NCBI GenBank assembly: GCA_008015835.1
Contig: SSGH01000030.1
Coordinates: 1 to 46,279, forward strand
DNA: 46,279 bases
From: Lysobacter sp.
GTDB lineage: Bacteria > Pseudomonadota > Gammaproteobacteria > Xanthomonadales > Xanthomonadaceae
Direction of reading: 5' to 3'
The notes below the pieces were generated by a model. The model saw nothing but the letters and a program-made list of their open reading frames with translations, was not told where the DNA came from and ran no database searches. Positions 2,342-46,279 of this stretch are shown here, piece by piece; within the stretch, counting starts at the first letter, position 1; every line of letters begins with the position of its first letter. The translations under genes were made by a program, and so were the position numbers.

Positions 2342-4492
2342 ATGGAACCCATCACTCCGTCCATCCTGATCGCGGTCGTGCTCGCGCCGCTTTGCGGCGC
2401 GATCCTCGCCGGCCTGTTCGGTCGTCGTATCGGCCGCGTCGGCGCGCATTCGGCGACGATTCTCGGCGTCGCCGTGAGCTGCGCGCTCTCGTGCTACACG
2501 CTGTGGCAGTTGCTGCAGGGCGCATCCCCGTTCAACGAGAACGTCTACACCTTCTTCGACGTGGCCGGCTACGACGCCCACGTCGGCTTCATGGTCGACA
2601 AGCTGACCGCGATGATGATGGTGGTCGTCACCTTCGTCTCGCTGCTGGTTCACGTCTACACCATCGGCTACATGGCCGAGGACCCGGGCTATCAGCGCTT
2701 CTTCAGCTACATCAGCCTGTTCACGTTCTCGATGCTGATGCTGGTGATGAGCAACAACTTCCTGCAACTGTTCTTCGGTTGGGAAGCGGTGGGTCTGGTG
2801 TCGTATCTTCTGATCGGGTTCTGGTTCAAGCGTCCCAGCGCGATCTTCGCCAATCTCAAAGCCTTCCTGGTCAACCGCGTCGGCGACTTCGGCTTCCTGC
2901 TCGGCATCGCCGGCGTGCTGTATTGGTTCGGCACGCTGGATTATGCGACCGTGTTCGCCAACGCCACCGCGACCATCGGCGGCGATCAGACCGTGCAGAT
3001 TTTCGCCGGCCACGAGTGGTCGGTCGCCACGCTGATCTGCATTTGCTTGTTCATCGGCGCGATGGGCAAATCCGCGCAGGTGCCGCTGCACGTGTGGCTG
3101 CCGGACTCGATGGAAGGCCCGACGCCGATCTCCGCGCTGATCCACGCCGCGACGATGGTGACCGCGGGCATCTTCATGGTCGCGCGCATGTCGCCGCTGT
3201 TCGAGCTGTCGGAAACGGCGCTGAACTTCGTGCTGTTCATCGGCGCGACCACGGCGTTCTTCACCGGCTTGATCGGTATCGTCCAGAACGACATCAAACG
3301 CGTGGTCGCGTATTCCACGCTGTCGCAGCTCGGCTACATGACCGTCGCGCTCGGCGTGTCGGCGTATTCGGCGGCGGTGTATCACTTGATGACCCACGCC
3401 TTCTTCAAAGCGCTGCTGTTCTTGGCCGCGGGCTCGGTCATCATCGGCATGCATCACGAGCAGGACATGCGCAAGATGGGCGGCCTGCGCAAGTACATGC
3501 CGATCACTTTCTGGACCAGCGTCATCGGGACGTTGGCCCTCGTCGGCACGCCGTTCTTCAGCGGGTTCTACTCGAAAGACACCATCATCGAGGCCGCCGC
3601 GCACCATGCGCACGAGTCGCATCATTGGATCGCGACCTACGGCTATTGGGCGGTGCTGCTGGGCGCGTTCGTGACCTCGTTCTACAGCTTCCGTTTGCTG
3701 TATCTGACCTACTTCGGCGAAGAGCGCTTCCGTCACGCGCACGATGGTCAAGCTCATGACGGTCACGGGCACGACGACCATGCCGACGATCATGCGCACG
3801 AAGAGCACCGCCACGCGCACGACGCTCACGCCCACGACGGCCATGACGACCATGGTCATGGTCATGGCCATGGCGCGCACGAGCCGCACGAATCGCCGTG
3901 GGTCGTGACGCTGCCGCTGATCCTGCTCGCGATTCCGTCGATCTTCATCGGCTTCTTCACCGTCGGTCCGATGCTGTTCGGCACCGATACCTCCGGCCAT
4001 ACCGAAGTCGCGCCGTTCTTCCTGGGCGCGATCGACGTGCTGCCGCAGCACGATGTGATGGCGGCGCTGAAGGAAGAATTCCACGGCGCGGTCGCGTTCG
4101 CGCTGCACGGTTTTACCGCGCCCGCGTTCTGGTTGGCCTTCGGCGGATTCTTGCTCGCCACGATCATGTATTGGTGGAAGCCGGAACTGCCGGCCAAGGT
4201 CGCCGCGTTCGGGCCGGCGAAGCTCATCGCCCGCATCCTGAACAACAAATACGGCATGGACGATCTGTGGATCGGCGGTTTCGCCGGCGGCGGCGTTCTC
4301 GCGGGCAAGCTGGCGCGCAAACACGACGAGAAAGTCGTGGACGGTCTGTTCGTCAACGGCAGCGCGCGGCTCGTGGACGTGTGCGCAGGCCTGCTGCGCA
4401 AGACCCAGACCGGTTATCTCTATCACTACGCCTTCGCGATGATTCTCGGCTTGATCGCGCTGATGGCCGTGCTGATCCACTACTCGCGCTGA
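2342..4492 (+). CDS. nuoL: NADH-quinone oxidoreductase subunit L (NuoL) with a histidine-rich insert
   Basis: 716-residue antiporter-like proton-pumping subunit at the distal end of the membrane arm. The expected motifs are present: FFGWEAVGLVSYLLIGFW with the membrane glutamate, HVWLPDSMEGPTPISALIHA with the broken-helix and histidine residues, and a long C-terminal region that should form the lateral helix. Between the antiporter core and the C-terminal part, residues about 465-516 (bases 3734-3889) form a polar loop with 20 histidines in about 52 residues, interleaved with Asp, Gly and Ala. This insert resembles a metal-binding segment and is not part of the E. coli subunit. The start ATG 2342 follows nuoK by 8 bases. 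Confidence 0.96.
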   Translation: MEPITPSILIAVVLAPLCGAILAGLFGRRIGRVGAHSATILGVAVSCALSCYTLWQLLQGASPFNENVYTFFDVAGYDAHVGFMVDKLTAMMMVVVTFVSLLVHVYTIGYMAEDPGYQRFFSYISLFTFSMLMLVMSNNFLQLFFGWEAVGLVSYLLIGFWFKRPSAIFANLKAFLVNRVGDFGFLLGIAGVLYWFGTLDYATVFANATATIGGDQTVQIFAGHEWSVATLICICLFIGAMGKSAQVPLHVWLPDSMEGPTPISALIHAATMVTAGIFMVARMSPLFELSETALNFVLFIGATTAFFTGLIGIVQNDIKRVVAYSTLSQLGYMTVALGVSAYSAAVYHLMTHAFFKALLFLAAGSVIIGMHHEQDMRKMGGLRKYMPITFWTSVIGTLALVGTPFFSGFYSKDTIIEAAAHHAHESHHWIATYGYWAVLLGAFVTSFYSFRLLYLTYFGEERFRHAHDGQAHDGHGHDDHADDHAHEEHRHAHDAHAHDGHDDHGHGHGHGAHEPHESPWVVTLPLILLAIPSIFIGFFTVGPMLFGTDTSGHTEVAPFFLGAIDVLPQHDVMAALKEEFHGAVAFALHGFTAPAFWLAFGGFLLATIMYWWKPELPAKVAAFGPAKLIARILNNKYGMDDLWIGGFAGGGVLAGKLARKHDEKVVDGLFVNGSARLVDVCAGLLRKTQTGYLYHYAFAMILGLIALMAVLIHYSR

Positions 4493-30625: not shown

Positions 30626-30668
30626 AGCGTGATCCGAGCGTGATCCAAGCGTGATTCCCGAGCGTACG
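30626..30668 (+). repeat. Direct repeats AGCGTGATCC upstream of the sensor kinase gene
   Basis: AGCGTGATCC occurs at 30626-30635 and 30637-30646, then AGCGTGATTCC at 30648-30658 and a partial AGCGTACG at 30661-30668. The 11-base period places the copies on the same face of the helix, and the array ends 11 bases before the ATG at 30680. Confidence 0.65.
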
Positions 30669-35977: not shown

Positions 35978-37858
35978 ATGACCGCACACTCCGCAAGCTA
36001 CGTTCGCGCCCTCGCATTGGCGACGGCGATGACGCTGTCGATCGCCGCGTCGCCGGCCTGCGCCGCGAAGCGCAAGCCGCTGCTCTCGTACAGGGTCTAT
36101 ACCATGACCGACACCGACTTCCGCGCCGAACGCGTCACCGAGCATCGCGACGGCGACGATTTGCTCACCGCCGGTTTGGGCCTGACCGGACTGCGCCAAC
36201 TCGCGCCGCCGGCGTTCGCCGATCCGGCCGCACCGACCGCCGCGGAACTGCGCCGTCGCGCGATTTGGAGCAATTGGCGCGGCATCGCCGATCTCGCCGT
36301 CGGCGGCGGCTACGGCGAGGTGTACGGCAGCACCGCGACGGTGCCGGGGCGCGAATTCTCCGCTTACGCCACCGTGCCCGACGCGAAGCATCCGCACCGG
36401 GTGTTGGTGCAGGTGCCGGATAGCTTCGATCGCAAACGCCGCTGCGTGGTGATCGCACCGTCGTCGGGCTCGCGCGGCGTCTACGGCGCGATCAGCGTGG
36501 GCGGCGCGTGGGGGCTGCCGAAAGGCTGCGCGGTGGCCTACACCGACAAAGGCACCGGCACCGATTATTTCGATATCGCCGCGCGCGCGGGCGCCCGCGC
36601 CGACGGCACGCCGGGCGTGGCCGGACGCGACGACGATCTCGCGTTCGCGCCGGACGTCGGCGAGAACGCGCGTGGCGTCGCGTTCAAGCATGCGCATTCG
36701 CAGGACAACCCCGAAGCTGATTGGGGCGTGCATGTGCATCAGGCCGCGCAATATGCGCTGCGTGCGTTGGATCGCGCATTCCCGGACGCCGCCCCGTTCA
36801 CGTTCGAGAATACGCGCACCATTGCGGTCGGTATCTCCAACGGCGGCGGTGCGGTATTGCGCGCGGCGGAAGTCGACGACGGTCGTGGCGACGGACGTTG
36901 GTTGGATGCGGTGGTGGCGGGCGAACCCAGTGTGTTGGTCGACGCCGAGGGCGCACGGGCGCTGTACGACTACGCGACCGACGCCGCGCTGCTGATGCCG
37001 TGCGCGCTGCTGCACATGAGCGATTTGCCGCAGCCGCCGCTGCAAGCGCAGGCGCGCGCGGCTTGGACCGAACGCTGCGCCACGCTGCGCGCGCTCGGCT
37101 TGGTGGAGGGCGATACCTCCGAAGCGCAGGCGCGCAACGCTTACGAGCGTATGCGCGCCGCTGGTTGGACCGACGAAGCCTTGCGCGCGGGTGCGCTGAG
37201 CGTCGGTTTCGATCTGTGGCGTGCGGTCGGTGTTACCTACGCCTCGGCCTACGGCCGTTATCGCGCGGGCGAACATCCCTGCGGCTTCTCGTTCGCGACG
37301 ACGAACGCCGACGCCAGCGTGCGCGCGGCCAGCGCGCAGGAGCGCGCGGCGTGGTGGAGCGACGCCAGCGGTATTCCGCCCGGCGCGGGCGTCGGCATCG
37401 TCGACGACGTCGCCAGCGCCGACCCGAAACTGATGCGGTTGCGCTGTCTGCGCGCGCTGTGGCAAGGCGACAGCGCCGACGCCGAACGCGTACGCGCGGG
37501 CGTCGCCGCCACGCGCGCCGGTTTGCCGCGACGCAAACTGCCGCTGACGGTGATCCACGGCGTCGACGATGGCTTGATTCCGATGGCGTTCACCAGCGCG
37601 CCCTACGTCGCGAAGGTCAAGCAGGCCGGCCGCGACGTGCGTTTTTGGCAGATCAAAAACGCGCAGCATTTCGACGCGTTTCTGGCGCTGCCGGATTACG
37701 GCGCGCGCTATTTGCCGATGTTGCCCTACGTTTACGCGGCGCTGGATCGCACGCTCGCGCATCTGGAAACCGGCGCGCCGCTGCCGAGCGACGCGGTGGT
37801 CGAAACCACGCCGCGCAAAGGCCAGCCGCTGACCCGCGAGCATTTGGCGATTCCCTGA
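35978..37858 (+). CDS. Exported D-(-)-3-hydroxybutyrate oligomer hydrolase
   Basis: 626 residues. A signal peptide (ALALATAMTLSIAASPACAA) precedes a mature part with the layout of the 3HB-oligomer hydrolase family. This includes GYGEVYGST, CVVIAPSSGSRGVYGAISVG, AYTDKGTGTDYFD, RGVAFKHAHSQDNPEADWG and the nucleophile segment VGISNGGGAVLRAAE with Ser287. HGVDDGLIP (Asp530/Asp531) and NAQHFDAF (His564) are likely the rest of the triad. These enzymes cut soluble 3-hydroxybutyrate oligomers released from polyhydroxybutyrate to monomers. With a 3-hydroxybutyrate dehydrogenase and a permease nearby this forms a coherent pathway. The family is usually annotated near 690 residues, so this member is somewhat short. 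Confidence 0.88.
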   Translation: MTAHSASYVRALALATAMTLSIAASPACAAKRKPLLSYRVYTMTDTDFRAERVTEHRDGDDLLTAGLGLTGLRQLAPPAFADPAAPTAAELRRRAIWSNWRGIADLAVGGGYGEVYGSTATVPGREFSAYATVPDAKHPHRVLVQVPDSFDRKRRCVVIAPSSGSRGVYGAISVGGAWGLPKGCAVAYTDKGTGTDYFDIAARAGARADGTPGVAGRDDDLAFAPDVGENARGVAFKHAHSQDNPEADWGVHVHQAAQYALRALDRAFPDAAPFTFENTRTIAVGISNGGGAVLRAAEVDDGRGDGRWLDAVVAGEPSVLVDAEGARALYDYATDAALLMPCALLHMSDLPQPPLQAQARAAWTERCATLRALGLVEGDTSEAQARNAYERMRAAGWTDEALRAGALSVGFDLWRAVGVTYASAYGRYRAGEHPCGFSFATTNADASVRAASAQERAAWWSDASGIPPGAGVGIVDDVASADPKLMRLRCLRALWQGDSADAERVRAGVAATRAGLPRRKLPLTVIHGVDDGLIPMAFTSAPYVAKVKQAGRDVRFWQIKNAQHFDAFLALPDYGARYLPMLPYVYAALDRTLAHLETGAPLPSDAVVETTPRKGQPLTREHLAIP

Positions 37859-39025: not shown

Positions 39026-39586
39026 TCAGGGCGTCGGCGGGGCTTCGGCCGCGCGCTGCGGCACCTTGCGCAATTTGCTCACGTCGTAGCCGAGTTCGCC
39101 GAGGCGCGCGACATGCGCGGCGTAATCGGTGTCGGAGATGCTCGGCGTGCGCGCCATGATCCAGACGTAATCGCGCGCGCTCCGGCCGACGATCGTCTGG
39201 CTGTAGTCCTCGTTCAAATAGACGATCACGTATTCGGCTTTGATCGGCCACACGAACTGCATGCCCCAAATCGCGTTGCCGGTGCCTTCGCGCACCGTGC
39301 CGACGGGCGTCATCTCTTCCATCGGCGCGTCGTGTCCGCCTTTGCGTTGCCGGAACGTGGTGAGAATCTTGCCGTCCGGGCCCTGGGCGTAGGATTCGAC
39401 GGCGTCGTAGGACTCGCGCTCGACGAACGTGGGAATGTGCGCGATGACGTACCAGTCGCCCATGAAGCGCGGCAGGTCCACGTTCGCGACCGGCGGAATT
39501 TGCGACTTCCCGCGCGCGCCCGCGGCGAACACCACAACGGCGACGAGCGCGACGGCCACCAGGCCGGCGACGACGAATTTGCTCAT
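39026..39586 (-). CDS. blc: Lipocalin (Blc-like)
   Basis: 186 residues. An N-terminal hydrophobic segment (VVAGLVAVALVAVVVFAAG) acts as signal or anchor; there is no lipobox cysteine, unlike E. coli Blc. The lipocalin hallmark is LPRFMGDWYVIAHIP near residue 40, followed by the beta-barrel with GNAIWGMQFVWPIKAEYVIV and DYVWIMARTPSISD. Bacterial lipocalins bind fatty acids and lysophospholipids. The ATG overlaps the stop of the upstream methyltransferase gene (ATGA), so it belongs to the lipid-modification operon as its last gene and may carry the product or its precursor. Confidence 0.9.
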   Translation of the reverse strand: MSKFVVAGLVAVALVAVVVFAAGARGKSQIPPVANVDLPRFMGDWYVIAHIPTFVERESYDAVESYAQGPDGKILTTFRQRKGGHDAPMEEMTPVGTVREGTGNAIWGMQFVWPIKAEYVIVYLNEDYSQTIVGRSARDYVWIMARTPSISDTDYAAHVARLGELGYDVSKLRKVPQRAAEAPPTP

Positions 39587-40686
39587 ATGCGATCTCCCGT
39601 ACTCTCGAGCGGACGAACGAAACGATAGTGCGCGACCAGCCATTCCTGGCCGTCGGCGTAACCGAACAATTCCGCGCAGGCCATCCAGAACATGCGCCAG
39701 CGCTGAAACCACAGCGGCGCGAGGGTCGGGCCGTAGGCGTCGCGCAGCACCGCCATCACCTCGTCGCGGCGCGCGTCTTGGTTCTTCAGCCAATCGTTCG
39801 CGGTGCGCTCGTAATGCCGGCCGTCGACGTGCCAGCGCCGCTCGATCCGCAGCGCGTCCTGGAACCACAGCAGCGTGTCGGCCGCGGGCATCAAACCACC
39901 GGTGAAGAAATGCCGGCCCATCCAGTTGCCTTCGCCTTCCGTCTCGAACGGATACATCAACGTGTTGTGCGCGAAAATATGCACGAACAGCTTGCCTCCC
40001 GGGCGCAGCCAGCGCGCGATATTGCCGAGCAGCGTGTCGTAATTGCGCATGTGCTCGAACATTTCGATGGACACGCAGCGGTCGAACCGTGCGGGGTCGA
40101 GTTCGAGCCGATTGACGTCGGTCGTGACGACGCGCACGCGATCGAAGCCGCGTTCGCGGCAGCGGGCTTCGATGTGTTCGCGCTGCGGTCGAGAGTTCGA
40201 CACCGCGGTGATGCGCGCGTTAGGATAGCGTTCGGCCATCCACAGCGTCAGCGAACCCCAGCCGCAGCCGAGTTCGAGAATGTCTTGGCCGTCGGCGAGT
40301 TCCGCGCGCTCGCCGTACAGCGCGAGCATCGCGTCCTCCGCCCGATCCAGCGTCTCGTCGCCGCGCGGGTAGTAGGCGCAGGAATACTTCAGCCGCTTGC
40401 CCAGGCAGCGTTCGAAGAACGCCGGCGGCAGTTCGTAGTGCTGCGCGTTCGCGGCGTCGGTGTGGATCGCGACGGGGCTACGGCGCAGTTGTTCGATGCG
40501 CTCGCGAAAGCGTTCGGCCTGCGCTTCGAGGCCGCCGGCCGATTCTTGCCGGAGGCGCTGTTCGCATTGACGACGGATGCCGTAGCGCAGCAGCGCATCC
40601 GGCAAAAGGCCGCGTTCGGCGAGCCCGATCAGGCCGGGGCCGGCACGATCTTGAGCGAGTTCTTGAGGCATCAGAGTATCGGTCAT
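39583..40686 (-). CDS. Cyclopropane-fatty-acyl-phospholipid synthase-like methyltransferase 2
   Basis: 367-residue SAM-dependent methyltransferase. The SAM motif ELGCGWGSLT starts at residue 138. YSCAYY (Cys103) lies where the classical synthase has its conserved cysteine, and SIEMFEHM gives E211 and H212. The C-terminal half with WFQRWRMFWMACAELFGYAD is typical of a subgroup that resembles plant N-methyltransferases more than E. coli Cfa. The gene begins 51 bases after the DUF2878 gene and overlaps the lipocalin gene. The acceptor is unknown; an unsaturated fatty acyl chain is likely from context. Confidence 0.88.
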   Translation of the reverse strand: MTDTLMPQELAQDRAGPGLIGLAERGLLPDALLRYGIRRQCEQRLRQESAGGLEAQAERFRERIEQLRRSPVAIHTDAANAQHYELPPAFFERCLGKRLKYSCAYYPRGDETLDRAEDAMLALYGERAELADGQDILELGCGWGSLTLWMAERYPNARITAVSNSRPQREHIEARCRERGFDRVRVVTTDVNRLELDPARFDRCVSIEMFEHMRNYDTLLGNIARWLRPGGKLFVHIFAHNTLMYPFETEGEGNWMGRHFFTGGLMPAADTLLWFQDALRIERRWHVDGRHYERTANDWLKNQDARRDEVMAVLRDAYGPTLAPLWFQRWRMFWMACAELFGYADGQEWLVAHYRFVRPLESTGDRI

Positions 40687-40737
40687 GGGAAGCGAGCCTG
40701 AATCGGAGGAGGGAAACGCATCGCGCGAATACGGGTT

Positions 40738-41310
40738 TCAGTTGGCGTGCGTCGGTTGCGGCGCGGAGGACGCCTCCGCCTCCGACGACCAGCGCCGCGC
40801 CAATACGGCTAGCGTCGCCATCGCGATCGCCCAGCCGATCGCGAGCGCGGTCATCGGTTGCCAGATCGGTTCGGCGAATGCGGCCGCGTTCCAGCCGCGG
40901 CCCGCGCCGAGATACGCGAGCGGGCCGAAGATCGCGCCGACGAACGCCGCCAGCGCGGGGCGACGCACGAGCGGGGCCATCGAGTGGCGCAGCGTCAGCG
41001 CGAACGACGCCCACATCGCGAGAATCCACAGCGGTGCGCAGCCGGGCGGCAATGCGACATCGTCGGCGGCGTAATCGATCAGCCCGGACAGCGCGAGTGC
41101 GCCGTCGAGCGATGCGCCCATGCCCAATGCGACGGCGAACAATTTGAAATCCGCGGCGCGGGCGCGCGCCGATTCCGCGGCCACGATCGGATGCAGCAGC
41201 GCGAACGCGGCGGCCGCGGCGACGCCGGGCCACCACGCGCCGCGGCCCGCGCCGATCACGGCGGCGAACCATACCGCTTCGTAACCCACGAAATTGAATA
41301 CGCGTTTCAT
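40738..41310 (-). CDS. DUF2878 membrane protein
   Basis: 190 residues with about five to six hydrophobic helices, beginning MKRVFNFVGYEAVWFAAVIG. The FVGYEAVWFAAV N-terminus and the LPPGCAPLWILAMWASFALTL segment fit DUF2878, a family that often sits beside Cfa-like and DUF1365 genes. No enzymatic motif is visible. ATG 41310 overlaps the stop of the preceding methyltransferase gene (ATGA). Confidence 0.85.
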   Translation of the reverse strand: MKRVFNFVGYEAVWFAAVIGAGRGAWWPGVAAAAAFALLHPIVAAESARARAADFKLFAVALGMGASLDGALALSGLIDYAADDVALPPGCAPLWILAMWASFALTLRHSMAPLVRRPALAAFVGAIFGPLAYLGAGRGWNAAAFAEPIWQPMTALAIGWAIAMATLAVLARRWSSEAEASSAPQPTHAN

Positions 41311-42611
41311 GCGCGCAGCGCCACGGTCGCATCGTGCGGAAGCTCGGGCATCGGCGCCGAGTCGCGATGTCCGGGTTTCGCGAGCAACAACTGCGCGACG
41401 CCGATCGAACGCTCGCGGAAACCGCCCTCGCAGTAGGCGAGATAGAACTCCCACATGCGGATGAAGCGCTCGTCGTAGCCCTGCGCACGCACCTGCGGCA
41501 ACGCCGCCAAGAAACGCTGGCGCCACGCCTGCAGCGTTCGCGCATAGCTGAGGCCGAAGTCCTCCAATTGGATCAGCGCCAGATCGCTGGCGCGCGTTTT
41601 GGCCTGCAGCATCGCCGCGATCGACGGGATGAAGCTGCCCGGGAACACATGGCGTTTGATGAAATCGACCGAATGCAGCGCCTGTTCGTAGCGGTGATCT
41701 TCGATCGTGATCGCTTGGACGAGCGCGAGGCCGTTCGGTTCGAGCAACCGCCCGAGCGTCTCGAAATACGTCGGCAAGAACGGCGCGCCGATGGCTTCGA
41801 TCATTTCGATCGACACCAATTTGTCGTAGCGACCGCGCAGATCGCGATAATCCTCCAGCAGCAGTTCGACGCGATCGCCGACGCCCGCCTCGGCGACGCG
41901 CTGCGCGGCGAGCGCATGCTGTTCGCGCGAGATCGTGGTGGTGGTGACGCGGCATCCGTAATGCGCGGCCGCATGCACCGCGAAACCGCCCCAACCGGTG
42001 CCGATTTCGATCACGCGGTCGCCCGGCTTCAACGCCAGTTTGCGGCAGATGCGGTCGAGTTTTCGGGTGGAGGCCGCATCCAGCGTATCGTCGTCGCCGG
42101 CCCAAATCGCCGAGGAATACATCATGTCCGGCGAGAGGAACAGCGAGAAGAACGCGTTGCCGAGATCGTAATGCGCCGCGATATTGCGACGGCTGCCGGC
42201 GCGGGTGTTGCGACGCCGTTCGTGCCACAACCGCATGGCCCAACCGCTGAGCCGCGCGAGTCCGGTTTCCATGCCGTCGAGCAGATCGCGATTGCGCACG
42301 AGCAGACGGACCAGCGCGACGAGATCGTCGCAGCGCCACAGTCCGTCCATGAACGCTTCGCCCGCGCCCACGCTGCCGTTGCCGGCGACCGCGCGGTAGA
42401 ACCCGGGGTCGTCGACGTCGATGCGCACGCGAAGCGCATCGTCGGCGTATTGCGCATCGCCCAATTCCACCGTGCCCAGCGCATCGCGGAGCGTCAAGCG
42501 GCCGTGCCGCAGTCGCGCCATCTGCGCGATCAAGCGCCGACGCAAGAAACGGTCGAACGCGCCGTACTCGGCTGCGGGCATGGCGTCGACTTGGCGGGCG
42601 ACATCGTTCAT
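41307..42611 (-). CDS. Cyclopropane-fatty-acyl-phospholipid synthase-like methyltransferase 1, altered active site
   Basis: 434 residues, the full two-domain length of the Cfa family. The SAM motif EIGTGWGG lies at 202-209. E272 in MIEAIG and Y356 in FGLSYARTL match the bicarbonate-binding Glu and Tyr of E. coli Cfa. The equivalent of its Cys139 is Ser167 (YSSAIW instead of YSCAYW), and the equivalent of His266 is Gln299. Such variants occur in Cfa-like enzymes beside FAD oxidoreductases, where a methyl group rather than a cyclopropane ring may be installed. ATG 42611 overlaps the DUF1365 stop. Confidence 0.88.
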   Translation of the reverse strand: MNDVARQVDAMPAAEYGAFDRFLRRRLIAQMARLRHGRLTLRDALGTVELGDAQYADDALRVRIDVDDPGFYRAVAGNGSVGAGEAFMDGLWRCDDLVALVRLLVRNRDLLDGMETGLARLSGWAMRLWHERRRNTRAGSRRNIAAHYDLGNAFFSLFLSPDMMYSSAIWAGDDDTLDAASTRKLDRICRKLALKPGDRVIEIGTGWGGFAVHAAAHYGCRVTTTTISREQHALAAQRVAEAGVGDRVELLLEDYRDLRGRYDKLVSIEMIEAIGAPFLPTYFETLGRLLEPNGLALVQAITIEDHRYEQALHSVDFIKRHVFPGSFIPSIAAMLQAKTRASDLALIQLEDFGLSYARTLQAWRQRFLAALPQVRAQGYDERFIRMWEFYLAYCEGGFRERSIGVAQLLLAKPGHRDSAPMPELPHDATVALRA

Positions 42612-43483
42612 CGGGAACCTCGGAATGCGATGGCTTTGGTCGGGTGATCGTGGACGGGTACGCCTTTGAGCCACAGGCGCAGCGCTTCCCAATGGATCGC
42701 GCCGACGACCTTCGCGGTCATCAGCGGGTAACGCCACAGCACGCGCCGCAGCGACGCTGCGTTCAACGGGCGTCGCCGCAGACTGAGATCCGCGTCGAAT
42801 TCGCGCCGGCCGTCTTCGTCGAATACGTCCATGCGCACGCGCAGGTCGTCGTCCGGCGCGGTGAAACGCCACGCATAATCACGGCGCATGCCGACGAAGG
42901 GCGAGACGTGGAAGCGTTTGTCGAATCGCCAGTGCAGCGCGCGGCCGTGGCGCTCCGCCGTGTCCGCGTCGAGCACGTAAGCGTGGCGTTCTTTCCACGG
43001 CGTATTGGTGATTTCGGCGACGATGCAGTCCAAGCGACAACCGTCCGCGGCGTAGCAGTAGTAAAAGCTCACCGGATTGAACACGTAGCCGGCGTAGCGC
43101 AGATGGGTCAACAGTCGGATCGGGCCGAGCGGGCGTCGACCGAGCGCGCGCTCGACGGTTTCGCGTACCGCGTCGGCGAGCGGTTGGCTCGGATCGCCGT
43201 GATAGTCGCTGCGCCGGAACGCCGCGAGATTGCGGCCGTGCGCCGACCACAGCCAGCGGCCGGCGAACACGCGATCGAGTTCGTCGAGGTCGAGATACAA
43301 CTGCGCCATTCGGTAGCGAAACGCGTGCGGCCGCGGCAGATGACGGCGATGACGCACGATGCCTTCGTACACCGCGCTGGCGAACGCGTCGCCGCGCTCA
43401 GCGGTGTTTTCGCGTTCGTGCGCCGCATCGAGCGCATCGTCGGGATGCGCGGCGGTATCGAGCCGCGCGCGTTCGGCGTTCAT
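42608..43483 (-). CDS. DUF1365 protein
   Basis: 291 residues. The family core is visible: YEGIVRHRRHLPRPHAFRYR, LLTHLRYAGYVFNPVSFYYC, ITNTPWKERHAYVL and KRFHVSPFVGMRRDYAW. There are several conserved Tyr, His and Asn residues and no signal peptide. The N-terminal ~35 residues are acidic and probably variable. DUF1365 is regularly encoded with FAD-dependent oxidoreductase and Cfa-like genes, and a role in fatty acid modification is suspected. Both ends overlap neighbours by ATGA. Confidence 0.9.
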   Translation of the reverse strand: MNAERARLDTAAHPDDALDAAHERENTAERGDAFASAVYEGIVRHRRHLPRPHAFRYRMAQLYLDLDELDRVFAGRWLWSAHGRNLAAFRRSDYHGDPSQPLADAVRETVERALGRRPLGPIRLLTHLRYAGYVFNPVSFYYCYAADGCRLDCIVAEITNTPWKERHAYVLDADTAERHGRALHWRFDKRFHVSPFVGMRRDYAWRFTAPDDDLRVRMDVFDEDGRREFDADLSLRRRPLNAASLRRVLWRYPLMTAKVVGAIHWEALRLWLKGVPVHDHPTKAIAFRGSR

Positions 43484-44814
43484 GCGCGCGCCTCGGCGGC
43501 GTTCGGATAGCCCGCGGCTTCGGCGCGTTCCACGGCGGCGTCGCTCGCGGCGCGCCAGCGCGCACCCATCGATTCCGCCGCCTCCACCGCGCTACGAATT
43601 CCGTCTTCGTGGAAACCCCAGCCCCAATAAGCGCCCGCGAACCACGTGCGACGCTGCCCCTGAATCTCGGCCTTGCGCGCCTGCGCGGCCACCGAGGCGT
43701 GGGTGTATTCGGGATGGTGGTAGCGCATGCGGCGCAGAATCTTGCTCGGGTCGATCGCCGCGGTGCGGTTGAGCGTCACGATGAACGGCTGCGGCGACAC
43801 GATGCCCTGCAGCAAGTTCATGCAGTAACTCACGGTGCAAACCTCGTCGCCGCGTTCGGACGGCGCCGGAATCGTCGCGTTCCAGGCGGCCCAGGCGTTG
43901 CGATGACGAGGCAGCAAGCGCGCATCGGTGTGCAGCACGGTGTCGTTGGCCTGATACGCAATCGCGCCGAGCACCGCGCGCTCGGTCTCGCTGGCGTCTT
44001 CGCCGAGAATGTTCAGCGCTTGATCGCTGTGGCAGGCGAGTAAGAGGCGATCGAAACGCTCGCTTCCGTGCGGGGTGTCGATCCGTACGCCGTCGGCATC
44101 GCGCACCGCGCGCAGCACCGGCGCGTTCGTGCGCGCGTCCACGCGCCAACGCGCCTGCAGCGCGCGCACGTAGGCGTTCGAGCCGCCCTCGACCACGCGC
44201 CATTGCGGCCGGTTCGCGATCTGCAGCATCTGATGATTGGCCATGAACCGCAGCAGATACTTCGCCGGAAAGCCGAGGATCTTCGCCGACGGCGACGACC
44301 ACAGCGCCGAGGCCATCGGCACCAGATGCTCGTCGCGGAACGCCGCGCCGTAGCGATGTTCCGCGAGATAGTCGCCGAGCGTGGGGCCGTCGCCGGGCGT
44401 GTCGAGCAGCGCCGGCGCTTCGCGATAAAAGCGCATGAGATCGCGGATCATGCCCCAGAAGCGCGGCGAGACCAGATTGCGCCGTTGGCAGAACAGCGAA
44501 TTGAGATCGGTCGCGTTGTATTCGAGTCCGGTCGCCTCGTTGCGCACCGAGAAACTCATCGTGGTCGGTCGCGAGGCGACGCCCAATTCTTCGAACAAAC
44601 GCGTGAGCAGCGGGTAGTGCCGCGGGTTGTGCACGATGAACCCCGTGTCCACGGCGTAGCGCGCGCCGTCGAGTTCGATGTCGTGCGTGTGGGTGTGGCC
44701 GCCGAGATAGTCCTGGGCCTCGAACAGCACGACCTCGTGCGCATGCGGCGCGCGCGACAGCAACCAGGCCGAGGCCAGACCGGCGATGCCCGAACCGACG
44801 ACGGCGATGCGCAT
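43480..44814 (-). CDS. FAD-dependent oxidoreductase (amine-oxidase/desaturase fold)
   Basis: 444 residues from ATG 44814. The dinucleotide-binding motif VVGSGIAGLASAWLLSR (G7, G9, G12) opens the protein, followed by VVLFEAQDYLGGHTHTH. Segments YAVDTGFIVHN, MSFSVRNEATGLEYN, LRFMANHQMLQI and AGAYWGWGFHEDGIRSAVEA identify the NAD(P)/FAD-binding amine-oxidase-like group that accompanies Cfa-like methyltransferases. In the Rhodobacter furan fatty acid pathway and in mycobacterial tuberculostearic acid synthesis a flavoprotein of this sort reduces or desaturates the methylated chain; the exact reaction here is inferred. The TGA of the desaturase overlaps its ATG. Confidence 0.9.
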   Translation of the reverse strand: MRIAVVGSGIAGLASAWLLSRAPHAHEVVLFEAQDYLGGHTHTHDIELDGARYAVDTGFIVHNPRHYPLLTRLFEELGVASRPTTMSFSVRNEATGLEYNATDLNSLFCQRRNLVSPRFWGMIRDLMRFYREAPALLDTPGDGPTLGDYLAEHRYGAAFRDEHLVPMASALWSSPSAKILGFPAKYLLRFMANHQMLQIANRPQWRVVEGGSNAYVRALQARWRVDARTNAPVLRAVRDADGVRIDTPHGSERFDRLLLACHSDQALNILGEDASETERAVLGAIAYQANDTVLHTDARLLPRHRNAWAAWNATIPAPSERGDEVCTVSYCMNLLQGIVSPQPFIVTLNRTAAIDPSKILRRMRYHHPEYTHASVAAQARKAEIQGQRRTWFAGAYWGWGFHEDGIRSAVEAAESMGARWRAASDAAVERAEAAGYPNAAEARA

Positions 44815-45821
44815 CAGCGCGCCCTCGCGTGCGCGGCGACCCAGTCGGGCACCGGTTTGAGATGGTGGACGAGGCGAAGCGCGGCCATCAGTCGCAAACC
44901 GTAGTAGGTGAGATCGATTTCCCACCAGCGGAACCCTTGGCGCGCCGATCCCGGAAAGAAATGATGGTTGTTATGCCAACCTTCGCCGAAGGTCAGCAGC
45001 GCCAGCCAAAGATTGTTGCGGCTCTGGTCGCGCGTCTCGAAGCGTCGCCGACCGAAGCGATGCGCGAGCGAGTTGATGGTGACGGTGGCGTGGAACAGCG
45101 CGACGGTGGAGACGAAGAACCCCCACACCAGCATCTGGCCGGCGCTGGTGCCGAGCTGCGGCGCGACGCGTTCTAACAACGCGCCGAGGGCGAACAGCGC
45201 GGTCGCCAAAGCGATCGGCACCAACGTGTCGAAGCGATCGAGCCAGCGCAATTCCGGGAAGCGGGCGAGATCGCGAATGCGCTGCCAGTCGGTGCGGAAG
45301 CCGCTGCGCGTCAGGAACCAGCCGACATGGCTCCACCAGAAACCGTGGACCTCGGGCGAATGCACGTCGCGCTCGGTGTCGGCGTGGCGATGGTGATTGC
45401 GATGATGCGCCGCCCACCATAGCGGCCCGCGCTGTACCGACGATGCGCCGATCAGCGCGAACACGAACTGCACCGGCCGCGAGGTGCGGAAGGTGCGATG
45501 CGAGAAGTAGCGATGATAGAAGCCGGTGATCGCGAACATGCGCACCGCGTACAGCACGATCGCCGCCGCGATCGCGACCGGCGAAACGCCGACCCAAAAC
45601 ACCAGAAGGCACGCCAGGTGCATCCCCAAAAACGGCACCACGCGCAGCCAGTCGATGCGGTCGTCGTGCGGTTCGTCCGCCATCGCGCGGTCGTCGATGC
45701 CGGTATCCAGCCAGCGCGCGAGCGCGGCGAACGGCCGCAGCCAGAGGCGACGAAGGTTCGTCCGGTGACGCGCGGCGCGCAATGCGATGGACGTACGTTC
45801 TCGGGCGGGCGTGTCGGGCAT
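44814..45821 (-). CDS. Acyl-CoA/fatty acid desaturase, membrane-bound diiron type
   Basis: 335 residues from ATG 45821, chosen for the GGAG site; an upstream ATG at 45851 lacks one. The three histidine boxes are HRYFSH (103-108), HHRNHH (139-144) and HNNHH (283-287), typical of delta-9 acyl-CoA desaturases. Two pairs of hydrophobic helices surround them. It inserts a cis double bond using O2, which would provide the unsaturated chain that the methyltransferases act on. It is the first gene of the operon, about 220 bases downstream of the anti-sigma factor gene. Confidence 0.93.
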   Translation of the reverse strand: MPDTPARERTSIALRAARHRTNLRRLWLRPFAALARWLDTGIDDRAMADEPHDDRIDWLRVVPFLGMHLACLLVFWVGVSPVAIAAAIVLYAVRMFAITGFYHRYFSHRTFRTSRPVQFVFALIGASSVQRGPLWWAAHHRNHHRHADTERDVHSPEVHGFWWSHVGWFLTRSGFRTDWQRIRDLARFPELRWLDRFDTLVPIALATALFALGALLERVAPQLGTSAGQMLVWGFFVSTVALFHATVTINSLAHRFGRRRFETRDQSRNNLWLALLTFGEGWHNNHHFFPGSARQGFRWWEIDLTYYGLRLMAALRLVHHLKPVPDWVAAHARAR

Positions 45822-46045
45822 GCGTTTCTCCGTGGCGAGTCCAGCACTCATACGGAGGACGACGGCATTCGGATGCACCCGATGCGTCGGATCGGATGCA
45901 TCGAATGCTTGGGATGTGTCGACGCATGGCCCGGCCACGGCATCGGTCGCCGCATCTCGCGTTCGATCGCGCGATCAGGCTTGGTCCGACGCAGCGAACG
46001 CGCCGGGAAGCGCGTTCGCTGGATGGGTCGAGACGCGGGCCGCGA
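45822..46045 (-). promoter_or_regulatory. Region upstream of the lipid-modification operon
   Basis: 224 bases between the anti-sigma gene and the desaturase. An inverted repeat AGCGAACGCG (45993-46002) / CGCGTTCGCT (46011-46020) may end the anti-sigma transcript. A perfect palindrome GATCGCGCGATC is at 45965-45976. The motif CGGATGCA occurs at 45870-45877 and 45893-45900. A promoter is expected here, but no certain ECF-type -35/-10 was identified. Confidence 0.5.
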
Positions 46046-46279
46046 TTACAGCGTGACCAGATCGCCCTTGGCAATGATCGGACCGGTCGCGATGCCCTGC
46101 GGCGCGCCGCCCTGCGGCTCCAGCGTGATCGCCAGCACCGCGCCCTGCTTCAAGGCTTCGCGCAGGGGTTCGGGCACGCTCACCGTGTGCGCGCGATCGA
46201 TCGACACGATGCCGAGCGACTTCGGCGATTCGCCCGGCGGAATCAGCCACAGTTCGGGCACGCGGCCTTGTTCGTCCGC
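46046..46279 (-). CDS. Anti-sigma factor, RskA-type C-terminal domain, partial
   Basis: The gene continues beyond the right edge; 77 C-terminal codons are visible, ending at TAA 46048-46046. The sequence begins ADEQGRVPELWLIPPGESPK and contains SLGIVSIDRAHTVSVP, LAITLEPQGGAPQG and ATGPIIAKGDLVTL. The pattern LWLIP..G..P.SLG...LEP.GG.P.G..TGP is characteristic of the RskA/anti-sigma-K periplasmic domain. An ECF sigma factor gene is expected further upstream on the same strand. Its proximity suggests that the sigma factor it restrains controls the lipid operon. Confidence 0.85.
   Translation of the reverse strand, partial: ADEQGRVPELWLIPPGESPKSLGIVSIDRAHTVSVPEPLREALKQGAVLAITLEPQGGAPQGIATGPIIAKGDLVTL

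What the first reader, a model, noticed from the sequence alone, without database searches (positions are those of the whole stretch)
39026..46279. Putative ECF-sigma-controlled operon for an unusual methylated or furan fatty acid
Seven minus-strand genes, most overlapping by 1-4 bases, encode desaturase, FAD oxidoreductase, DUF1365, Cfa-like methyltransferase, DUF2878, a second methyltransferase and lipocalin, preceded by an RskA-type anti-sigma factor. Similar sets (Cfa-like methylase, flavoprotein, DUF1365) are linked in Rhodobacter to methylated furan fatty acids formed under singlet-oxygen stress, recalled from the literature and not checked. The dedicated desaturase, second methyltransferase and lipocalin make this an expanded version that may yield a different lipid.
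Basis: partly seen in the sequence, partly recalled or inferred. Interest (0 to 1): 0.7.

Follow-up and report, generated by a model that had tools for sequence, protein, structure and literature searches.

The report
Redox-controlled furan fatty acid operon
This stretch of bacterial DNA appears to carry a full set of genes for an unusual ring-containing membrane fatty acid that in other bacteria reacts with damaging oxygen, placed here under a different stress switch from the one known in Rhodobacter.

Summary
Seven minus-strand genes (39026-45821) follow the end of an rskA gene; five of six junctions overlap by 1-4 bases. The window is a whole contig. Another contig of the genome overlaps its end and supplies the complete RskA gene and an ECF sigma factor with SigK-type cysteines. 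One motif, TGCATCC-N16-CGTA, precedes both the sigma and the desaturase gene. Flavoprotein, DUF1365 and first methyltransferase match UfaD, UfaO and UfaM in content and order. The second methyltransferase is FufM-like (48-50% to proteins of a genus taken to be Rhodopseudomonas), so the likely product is a dimethyl-furan fatty acid, not a wholly unknown lipid. The cluster is usual for its family: desaturase-UfaD-UfaO-UfaM-FufM in 60 of 60 loci fetched. New: a Delta9-type desaturase leads the operon; and two unrelated controllers, SigK-RskA (25 of 60) and ECF-ChrR (16 of 60), stand beside it, never both seen, with at least six exchanges on the enzyme tree, while the promoter motif stays (40 of 41). 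This ties SigK-RskA, whose signal is unknown, to furan lipids. Lipid and regulation are predictions; no chemistry was done.

The parts
46046..46279 (-). 3' end of rskA (anti-sigma-K factor, 77 codons plus stop; cut by the contig end). The complete gene and the sigma gene lie on contig C7 (L078, minus strand): rskA 495-1304, sigma stop at 1301 and matched up to 1882
   Evidence: PF10099 RskA_C 4.9e-15, full length 5.3e-21; contig overlap 98.1% over 728 bases; ends
45851..45877 (-). predicted ECF promoter TGCATCC-N16-CGTA, 29 bases upstream of the desaturase start codon; the same motif lies upstream of the sigma gene (L078 1965-1991, minus)
   Evidence: 40 of 41 family loci with a sigma/anti-sigma pair have it upstream of the desaturase. 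Alone it is weak: 1 site in the window against 0.19 expected, 18 of 100 shuffles have one
44814..45821 (-). DES: membrane fatty acid desaturase, stearoyl-CoA-desaturase-like, with HX4H, HXXHH, HXXHH motifs (read from the sequence)
   Evidence: PF00487; the only solved relatives found are acyl-CoA desaturases 4ymk and 4zyo, best 1.2e-26; 60 of 60 family loci fetched
43480..44814 (-). UfaD-like FAD-dependent oxidoreductase (methyl-branched acyl desaturase)
   Evidence: PF01593; 43% over 36% of its length to the partial flavoprotein frame beside the UfaM match in g288 genomes (L130, L135)
42608..43483 (-). UfaO-like DUF1365 protein (O2-dependent furan ring closure)
   Evidence: PF07103 1.1e-84; 38% to the g288 protein
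41307..42611 (-). UfaM-like SAM methyltransferase; Ser and Gln where E. coli Cfa has C139 and H266
   Evidence: PF02353 4e-82; 42% to the g288 protein; active-site comparison
40738..41310 (-). DUF2878 protein, function unknown
   Evidence: PF11086 1e-35; 49 of 60 family loci
39583..40686 (-). FufM-like SAM methyltransferase, predicted to methylate the furan ring to the dimethyl form
   Evidence: 48-50% to three g288 proteins, 48% and 45% to Rhodopseudomonas sp. B29 and R. palustris JSC-3b; nearest solved structures 6gkv and 5kn4 (plant N-methyltransferases) at 245 and 206 bits against 101 for E. coli Cfa
39026..39586 (-). lipocalin (N-terminal hydrophobic segment, no Cys in the protein, so no lipobox), possible carrier of acyl chains
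   Evidence: PF08212 5.6e-40

Best explanation
The stretch is a pathway for methylated furan fatty acids, built on phospholipid chains and run by a stress sigma factor. Inferred route: the DES desaturase makes or tops up a cis double bond; the UfaM-like enzyme methylates it; the UfaD-like flavoprotein adds a second, conjugated double bond; the DUF1365 UfaO-like protein inserts O2-derived oxygen to close the furan ring; the FufM-like enzyme adds a second ring methyl, giving a dimethyl-furan fatty acid. Lipocalin and DUF2878 are accessory. An ECF sigma factor of the SigK type, held by the membrane anti-sigma factor RskA, transcribes both its own gene and the operon from TGCATCC-N16-CGTA promoters. 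By analogy with R. sphaeroides, the furan lipid reacts with singlet oxygen and its loss may feed back on the anti-sigma factor. Shown here: gene content, order, conservation, active-site signatures, the sigma gene, the shared motif, the exchange of controllers. Inferred: product, order of steps, DES substrate, that the motif is a promoter, the inducing signal.
For: UfaD-UfaO-UfaM order is as in the g288 cluster, and each protein finds its counterpart there (published roles PMC7380195). Second methyltransferase: in 398 genomes of the phylum, hits score at least 284 bits or at most 111 bits, nothing listed between (one 107-residue fragment of the first kind, G411, scores 91); in two finished g288 genomes the match lies at 1.04 and 1.01 Mb, near where RPA0924 should be, and in the one read (L109) it follows a DUF1295 gene. 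Linkage: 56 of the 80 named FufM-type loci kept have UfaD and UfaO in the fetched stretch. The genome has three CMAS matches: these two at 277 and 140 bits and one at 31 bits, so no separate cyclopropane synthase was seen. Active site: Ser or Ala for C139 and Gln for H266 in 105 of 105 proteins of these loci, all five residues intact in 21 of 21 Cfa-type proteins picked as controls. Control: sigma and full rskA on C7; the motif, found in the 25 RskA loci, is also in 15 of 16 ChrR loci not used to find it, against 3 of 19 loci with no pair seen. SigK-type Cys pair in 26 of 26 RskA-linked sigmas, 0 of 15 ChrR-linked.
Against: No lipid data. The Ser/Gln site does not exclude cyclopropane: cotton GhCPS1 has Ser and Gln there and makes cyclopropane fatty acids (PMC3132707). 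Identities to the proven pathway's relatives are 38-50%. The FufM assignment rests on unnamed g288 genomes (taken to be Rhodopseudomonas), two named strains and map position, not on RPA0924 itself, which was not fetched. The same protein branch holds plant N-methyltransferases. DUF1295, FufM's usual neighbour (54 of 60 family loci, 65 of 80 named loci), is missing from this operon. The contig overlap is 98.1%, not 100%, so C7 and C9 may come from mixed strains. One motif copy in the window is by itself unremarkable. 19 of 60 family loci show no pair nearby. Induction by singlet oxygen is untested.
Confidence: 0.75

Rival explanations
1. A cyclopropane fatty acid operon: the first methyltransferase is an ordinary Cfa and the other genes modify or protect the ring.
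For: Nearest solved structure is E. coli Cfa; cotton GhCPS1 has the same Ser and Gln in the bicarbonate site and makes cyclopropane.
Against: Active-site pattern differs from 21 of 21 Cfa-type controls; constant company of UfaD, UfaO and FufM; the cotton paper also reports that an Agrobacterium homologue pair made no cyclopropane in yeast.
Confidence: 0.08
2. The pathway stops before the ring: it makes methyl-branched or conjugated methylated fatty acids, and DUF1365 does something else here.
For: DUF1365 is only 38% identical to the g288 protein; the lead desaturase could change the chain.
Against: H45, R47, N136, T161, Y169, K189, S194 and Y203 are the same in 110 of 110 DUF1365 rows, two g288 proteins among them (the rows all come from these clusters, so this shows conservation, not activity).
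Confidence: 0.09
3. The second methyltransferase is not a FufM but an N- or head-group methyltransferase, so the product is a monomethyl furan.
For: Best solved relatives are plant N-methyltransferases; DUF1295 is missing here.
Against: 48-50% to g288 proteins near the RPA0924 place; with UfaD and UfaO in 56 of 80 named loci and 60 of 60 family loci.
Confidence: 0.12
4. The adjacent SigK-RskA pair does not control the operon; the genes are neighbours only.
For: 224-base gap between rskA and the desaturase; 19 of 60 family loci have no pair within the fetched stretch.
Against: Same motif before the sigma gene, or the gene upstream of it, in 22 of 25 RskA loci and before the desaturase in 25 of 25; in the named loci ChrR clusters carry the published TGATC form in 27 of 31, so such motifs follow the controller.
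Confidence: 0.1

Closest known systems
R. sphaeroides UfaM/UfaD/UfaO and R. palustris FufM furan fatty acid pathway (PMC7380195)
   Same: All four enzyme types, UfaD-UfaO-UfaM order as in g288
   Different: All in one operon with a lead desaturase, DUF2878 and lipocalin; SigK-RskA beside it instead of RpoE-ChrR; promoter motif GCATCC instead of TGATCC; no DUF1295 beside the FufM-like gene
ECF11 RpoE-ChrR core regulon (PMC6852236; P. syringae PSPTO_1043/1042, PMC5507510; passages)
   Same: Same enzyme genes as regulon members
   Different: No ChrR cupin match in this genome; membrane anti-sigma instead of a cytoplasmic one
SigK-RskA systems (PMC7509140, passages); mycobacterial sigK locus with flavoprotein, DUF1365, Cfa-like and DUF1295 genes (locus make-up recalled, from no call)
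   Same: Sigma with two cysteines 50 residues apart, RskA_C anti-sigma; sigK there is autoregulated through the Rv0449c promoter
   Different: FufM-like gene, desaturase and lipocalin added; in the passages seen SigK is not linked to furan lipids
R. capsulatus RpoE-ChrR, nearer to SigK-RskA than to the R. sphaeroides pair (PMC7074977, passages)
   Same: An earlier sign that a SigK-RskA-like pair can stand in for RpoE-ChrR in photooxidative stress
   Different: That paper lists no R. capsulatus homologue of RSP_1090 or RSP_1091; here the pair sits on the furan genes and the exchange recurs

Membership tests
UfaM/UfaD/UfaO furan fatty acid pathway | UfaM-type methylase, UfaD-type flavoprotein and DUF1365 UfaO present and linked | tested here: met
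UfaM/UfaD/UfaO furan fatty acid pathway | active site unlike Cfa (Ser/Ala at C139, Gln at H266), as in the g288 UfaM proteins | tested here: met
   105 of 105 against 0 of 21 controls; a signature drawn here, shared with cotton CPS
UfaM/UfaD/UfaO furan fatty acid pathway | furan fatty acid produced | not testable with these tools
   needs GC-MS
FufM (9M5-FuFA ring methylase) | orthology to RPA0924 | tested here: inconclusive
   48-50% to g288 proteins near the expected map place, DUF1295 neighbour in L109; RPA0924 itself not fetched
SigK-RskA | RskA_C anti-sigma next to an ECF sigma | tested here: met
SigK-RskA | conserved cysteine pair (C133/C183 in M. tuberculosis, PMC7509140) | tested here: met
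   residues 140 and 190 of the matched stretch in this genome's sigma; same columns in 26 of 26 RskA-linked sigmas
SigK-RskA | placement in ECF18 or ECF19 | not tested
   no reference sigma sequences were fetched
ECF11 RpoE-ChrR regulon | ChrR cupin anti-sigma | tested here: not met
   no PF12973 match at E 0.001 in the genome
ECF11 RpoE-ChrR regulon | TGATC-N-CGTA promoter before the operon | tested here: not met
   0 of 60 family loci upstream of the desaturase
Cyclopropane fatty acid synthase | bicarbonate-site residues C139, E239, H266, I268, Y317 (list in PMC3132707) | tested here: not met
   Ser for C139 and Gln for H266 in the window protein; cotton enzymes show that this does not exclude cyclopropane

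The most novel reading that the evidence does not exclude
Furan fatty acid genes form a module whose controller is interchangeable: a cytoplasmic ChrR pair and a membrane RskA pair have replaced each other repeatedly on one unchanged promoter because both read the same cue, the oxidation of the furan lipid that the operon makes. Then the unknown signal of SigK-RskA systems in general would be singlet oxygen or lipid peroxidation sensed through furan fatty acids.
Probability: 0.22. Interest if true: 0.82.

Novelty: new variant of a known kind. Interest (0 to 1): 0.6.

Why it matters
It predicts dimethyl-furan fatty acids in a large bacterial family (taken to be Lysobacteraceae; not named by any search). 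One loose paper search with its genera showed no use of 'furan fatty acid' in the 20 rows listed. It gives an active-site signature that separates the methylases of these clusters from the ordinary cyclopropane synthases checked. And it links SigK-RskA, whose signal PMC7509140 calls still unknown, to the furan lipids whose genes R. sphaeroides needs for ChrR turnover under singlet oxygen (PMC6852236). The repeated exchange of two unrelated sigma/anti-sigma pairs on one promoter is a natural experiment on what the anti-sigma factor senses.

Tried and rejected
C54:169-375 as the missing sigma gene: it sits beside a nadB-like gene and looks like the housekeeping rpoE (both recalled), and no ORF of the 20 relatives matched it at E 1e-10. 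The published ECF11 motif: none before the desaturase in 60 loci nor anywhere in C7:1-6000; two sites elsewhere in the window are more than the 0.14 expected but far from this operon. DUF1365 as a known fold: the AlphaFold model is fair (pLDDT 83, pTM 0.82) but Foldseek gave no match at E 0.001; the rows of highest probability are nitrobindin-like barrels (0.91-0.97, E 0.01-0.06, TM about 0.3 and 0.5), too weak to name a cofactor. A name for the window's organism: no tool gave one; a gammaproteobacterial, Lysobacteraceae-like reading is inference. The search for furan fatty acids with Lysobacter, Xanthomonas or Stenotrophomonas asked for two of four terms, so it is a weak negative. Veyrier 2008 on the SigK regulon is not held, so the mycobacterial locus make-up is recalled. 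Whether FabA/FabB, not DES, supply the double bond was not tested. Sigma pairs elsewhere in the 19 'none' genomes were not searched for.
Full report
WHAT IS THERE. The seven genes and the rskA end are present on the minus strand. Five of six junctions overlap by 1-4 bases; the sixth is a 51-base gap. The window is the whole contig C9. The first 728 bases of contig C7 match window 45552-46279 at 98.1%, so C7 continues the locus: a complete rskA (PF10099 5.3e-21) and, overlapping it by 4 bases, an ECF sigma gene (Sigma70_r2 1.1e-18, region 4 1.5e-09), then the end of a peptidase-like gene (family recalled) as in same-genus relatives. The overlap is not perfect, which may reflect strain mixture (4.25% contamination given).

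THE ENZYMES. PMC7380195 (abstract, part 2 of 7 of the text and passages seen) assigns UfaM = methylase, UfaD = flavoprotein desaturase of the methyl-branched chain, UfaO = DUF1365 protein needed to put O2 oxygen in the ring, FufM (RPA0924) = second methylase giving the dimethyl furan. I took genus g288 to be Rhodopseudomonas: all 16 of its genomes with a FufM-type hit also have reaction-centre genes, most are near 5.3 Mb, and the nearest named match to its protein is Rhodopseudomonas sp. B29 at 82%. This is inference. There the window proteins find counterparts at 42% (UfaM), 38% (UfaO), 43% over the part held (UfaD) and 48-50% (FufM), with UfaD-UfaO-UfaM in the same order. In two finished g288 genomes the FufM-type gene lies at 1.04 and 1.01 Mb; 924 of about 4,836 genes in 5.46 Mb (recalled) predicts 1.04 Mb. 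In the one read it follows a DUF1295 gene, as in most family loci here. In 398 genomes of the phylum FufM-type hits score 284 bits or more and the other listed hits 111 or less, apart from one fragment of the first kind. The nearest solved structures are plant coclaurine and pavine N-methyltransferases, not Cfa; PMC10940516 (passages) gives 37.9% identity between FufM and the Arabidopsis lipid-droplet methyltransferase LIME1.

A TEST OF UFAM AGAINST CFA. PMC3132707 (passages) lists C139, E239, H266, I268 and Y317 of E. coli Cfa as strictly conserved in non-plant enzymes. In 105 proteins from these clusters (60 family loci plus the window, 2 g288, 7 other, 35 from named loci, 34 of those with DUF1365 in the stretch) C139 is Ser or Ala in 105 of 105 and H266 is Gln in 105 of 105, with the other three kept. 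In 21 of 21 Cfa-type proteins picked as controls, none with DUF1365 seen beside it, all five are intact. The same paper is the main caution: cotton GhCPS1 has Ser and Gln and makes cyclopropane, so the signature marks a lineage and does not prove a product. Besides the two operon proteins the genome has one CMAS match, at 31 bits.

CONSERVATION. DUF1365 is in 106 of 198 family genomes, the window's own included, and the FufM-type gene in 106 of 198; differences seen between the lists are G142 (DUF1365 only) and G063 (FufM-type only). I fetched 60 of the other 105 DUF1365 loci, from 32 genera. In 60 of 60 the order is DES-UfaD-UfaO-UfaM-FufM on one strand; DUF1295 is in 54, DUF2878 in 49, lipocalin in 37. 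The window lacks DUF1295, like 5 of 6 same-genus loci. DES was not seen in 18 FufM-type loci from other groups (L109-L125, L128; 7 of them hold UfaD and UfaO) nor in the 80 named loci, but it is in both same-order loci L126 and L127: a lineage-level addition. One same-genus genome, G013, has neither gene.

THE CONTROLLER. Beside the operon stand a SigK-type sigma with RskA in 25 of 60 loci, an ECF sigma with ChrR in 16, neither within the fetched stretch in 19, and both in 0. The sigma factors form two deep clades (the tool warns that long branches meet, so their joining is unsure). All 26 RskA-linked sigmas, this genome's included, have cysteines in the same two columns, 50 apart; none of 15 ChrR-linked ones has. 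PMC7509140 (passages) ties that pair to SigK, conserved in 94% of ECF18 and 56% of ECF19. On a quick tree of UfaD, UfaO and UfaM from 61 loci the RskA/ChrR state changes at least 6 times; well-supported branches alone force at least 3 for the ChrR group. Genera g11, g15 and g29 hold both types (in g11 the ChrR pair is the downstream one of L227). Among the 80 named loci 33 have ChrR, 8 RskA, and 1 both.

THE PROMOTER. Enumerating two-part motifs in the RskA loci gave GCATC-N17-CGTA. Upstream of DES it occurs in 25 of 25 RskA loci and, in loci not used to find it, 15 of 16 ChrR loci; with this spacing it is in 3 of 19 loci with no pair (7 of 19 with spacing 16-18). Fisher test, 40 of 41 against 3 of 19: p about 1e-10, but relatives are not independent. 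It also precedes the sigma gene in 9 of 25 RskA and 13 of 16 ChrR loci, and in 13 further RskA loci the unnamed gene upstream of sigma. Over the 60 loci there are 102 sites with spacing 17 against 0-23 for eight other spacings. The TGATC form is 0 of 60 here. In the 56 named loci with UfaD, looked at more loosely (several upstream stretches each), TGATC is in 27 of 31 ChrR loci, 0 of 6 RskA loci, 1 of 18 with neither and the 1 with both; GCATC is in 1 of 31, 2 of 6, 7 of 18 and 0 of 1. So in this family both controllers seem to face the same promoter, unlike the named ChrR loci. In the window the site is 45851-45877, in C7 the sigma site is 1965-1991; one such site in 46 kb is by itself unremarkable.

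HOW IT LIKELY WORKS. Stress, plausibly singlet oxygen or lipid peroxides, releases the SigK-type sigma from RskA; sigma transcribes itself and the operon; DES supplies or extends the pool of cis double bonds (solved relatives are stearoyl-CoA desaturases; the genome has two other desaturases); UfaM, UfaD, UfaO and FufM build the dimethyl furan on phospholipid. In R. sphaeroides singlet oxygen destroys the furan lipid, and furan genes are needed for ChrR turnover (PMC6852236, passages). A like loop through RskA is my inference. PMC7074977 (passages) notes that the R. capsulatus RpoE-ChrR pair is nearer to SigK-RskA, an earlier hint of such an exchange; PMC4067076 (passages) lists a gene, CFA2, also labelled coclaurine N-methyltransferase, as induced by singlet oxygen in Chlamydomonas.

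NOVELTY. The pathway and each control pair are known. Of 49 papers holding two of 'furan fatty acid', RskA and SigK, 40 were listed (titles and abstract starts seen); three of those hold 'furan fatty acid' with one of the others: the R. capsulatus paper above and two that look unrelated by title (PMC9960799, PMC11851581). A search for Rv0447c with furan found none. So within these searches nothing joins furan lipids to SigK-RskA beyond the R. capsulatus remark. The dedicated desaturase, the single-operon dimethyl set and the repeated exchange of controllers on a kept promoter are the new parts.

Noticed in passing
L040:6475-7221 and 26 other family loci: An unnamed secreted-looking protein of about 250 residues without a Pfam match lies near the operon in 27 of 60 loci and has the same promoter motif upstream in 23 of those 27.
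   Followed up: partly
window 45552-46279 and G000:C7:1-728: Two contig ends of the same genome overlap at 98.1%, not 100%, which suggests strain mixture or an assembly artefact.
   Followed up: yes
family loci between DUF2878 and the FufM-type gene; window 40687-40737: DUF1295, the usual partner of the FufM-type gene, is missing in the window and in 5 of 6 same-genus loci.
   Followed up: partly
window 4250-4273 (-) and 30642-30666 (+): Two sites fit the published ECF11 pattern GATCCA-N14-18-CGTA where 0.14 are expected; 2 of 100 shuffles have as many. Far from the operon.
   Followed up: no
L160, L162, L172, L185, L195, L197, L199, L200: Eight of 80 named FufM-type loci have a SigK-RskA-like pair nearby; L160 has both kinds.
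   Followed up: partly
window 42608-43483: The DUF1365 model is beta-rich with invariant H45, R47, N136, T161, Y169, K189, S194, Y203; only weak nitrobindin-like hits.
   Followed up: partly
window 35978-37858 (+): A 626-residue secreted-looking protein that resembles a 3-hydroxybutyrate oligomer hydrolase (recalled, not searched).
   Followed up: no
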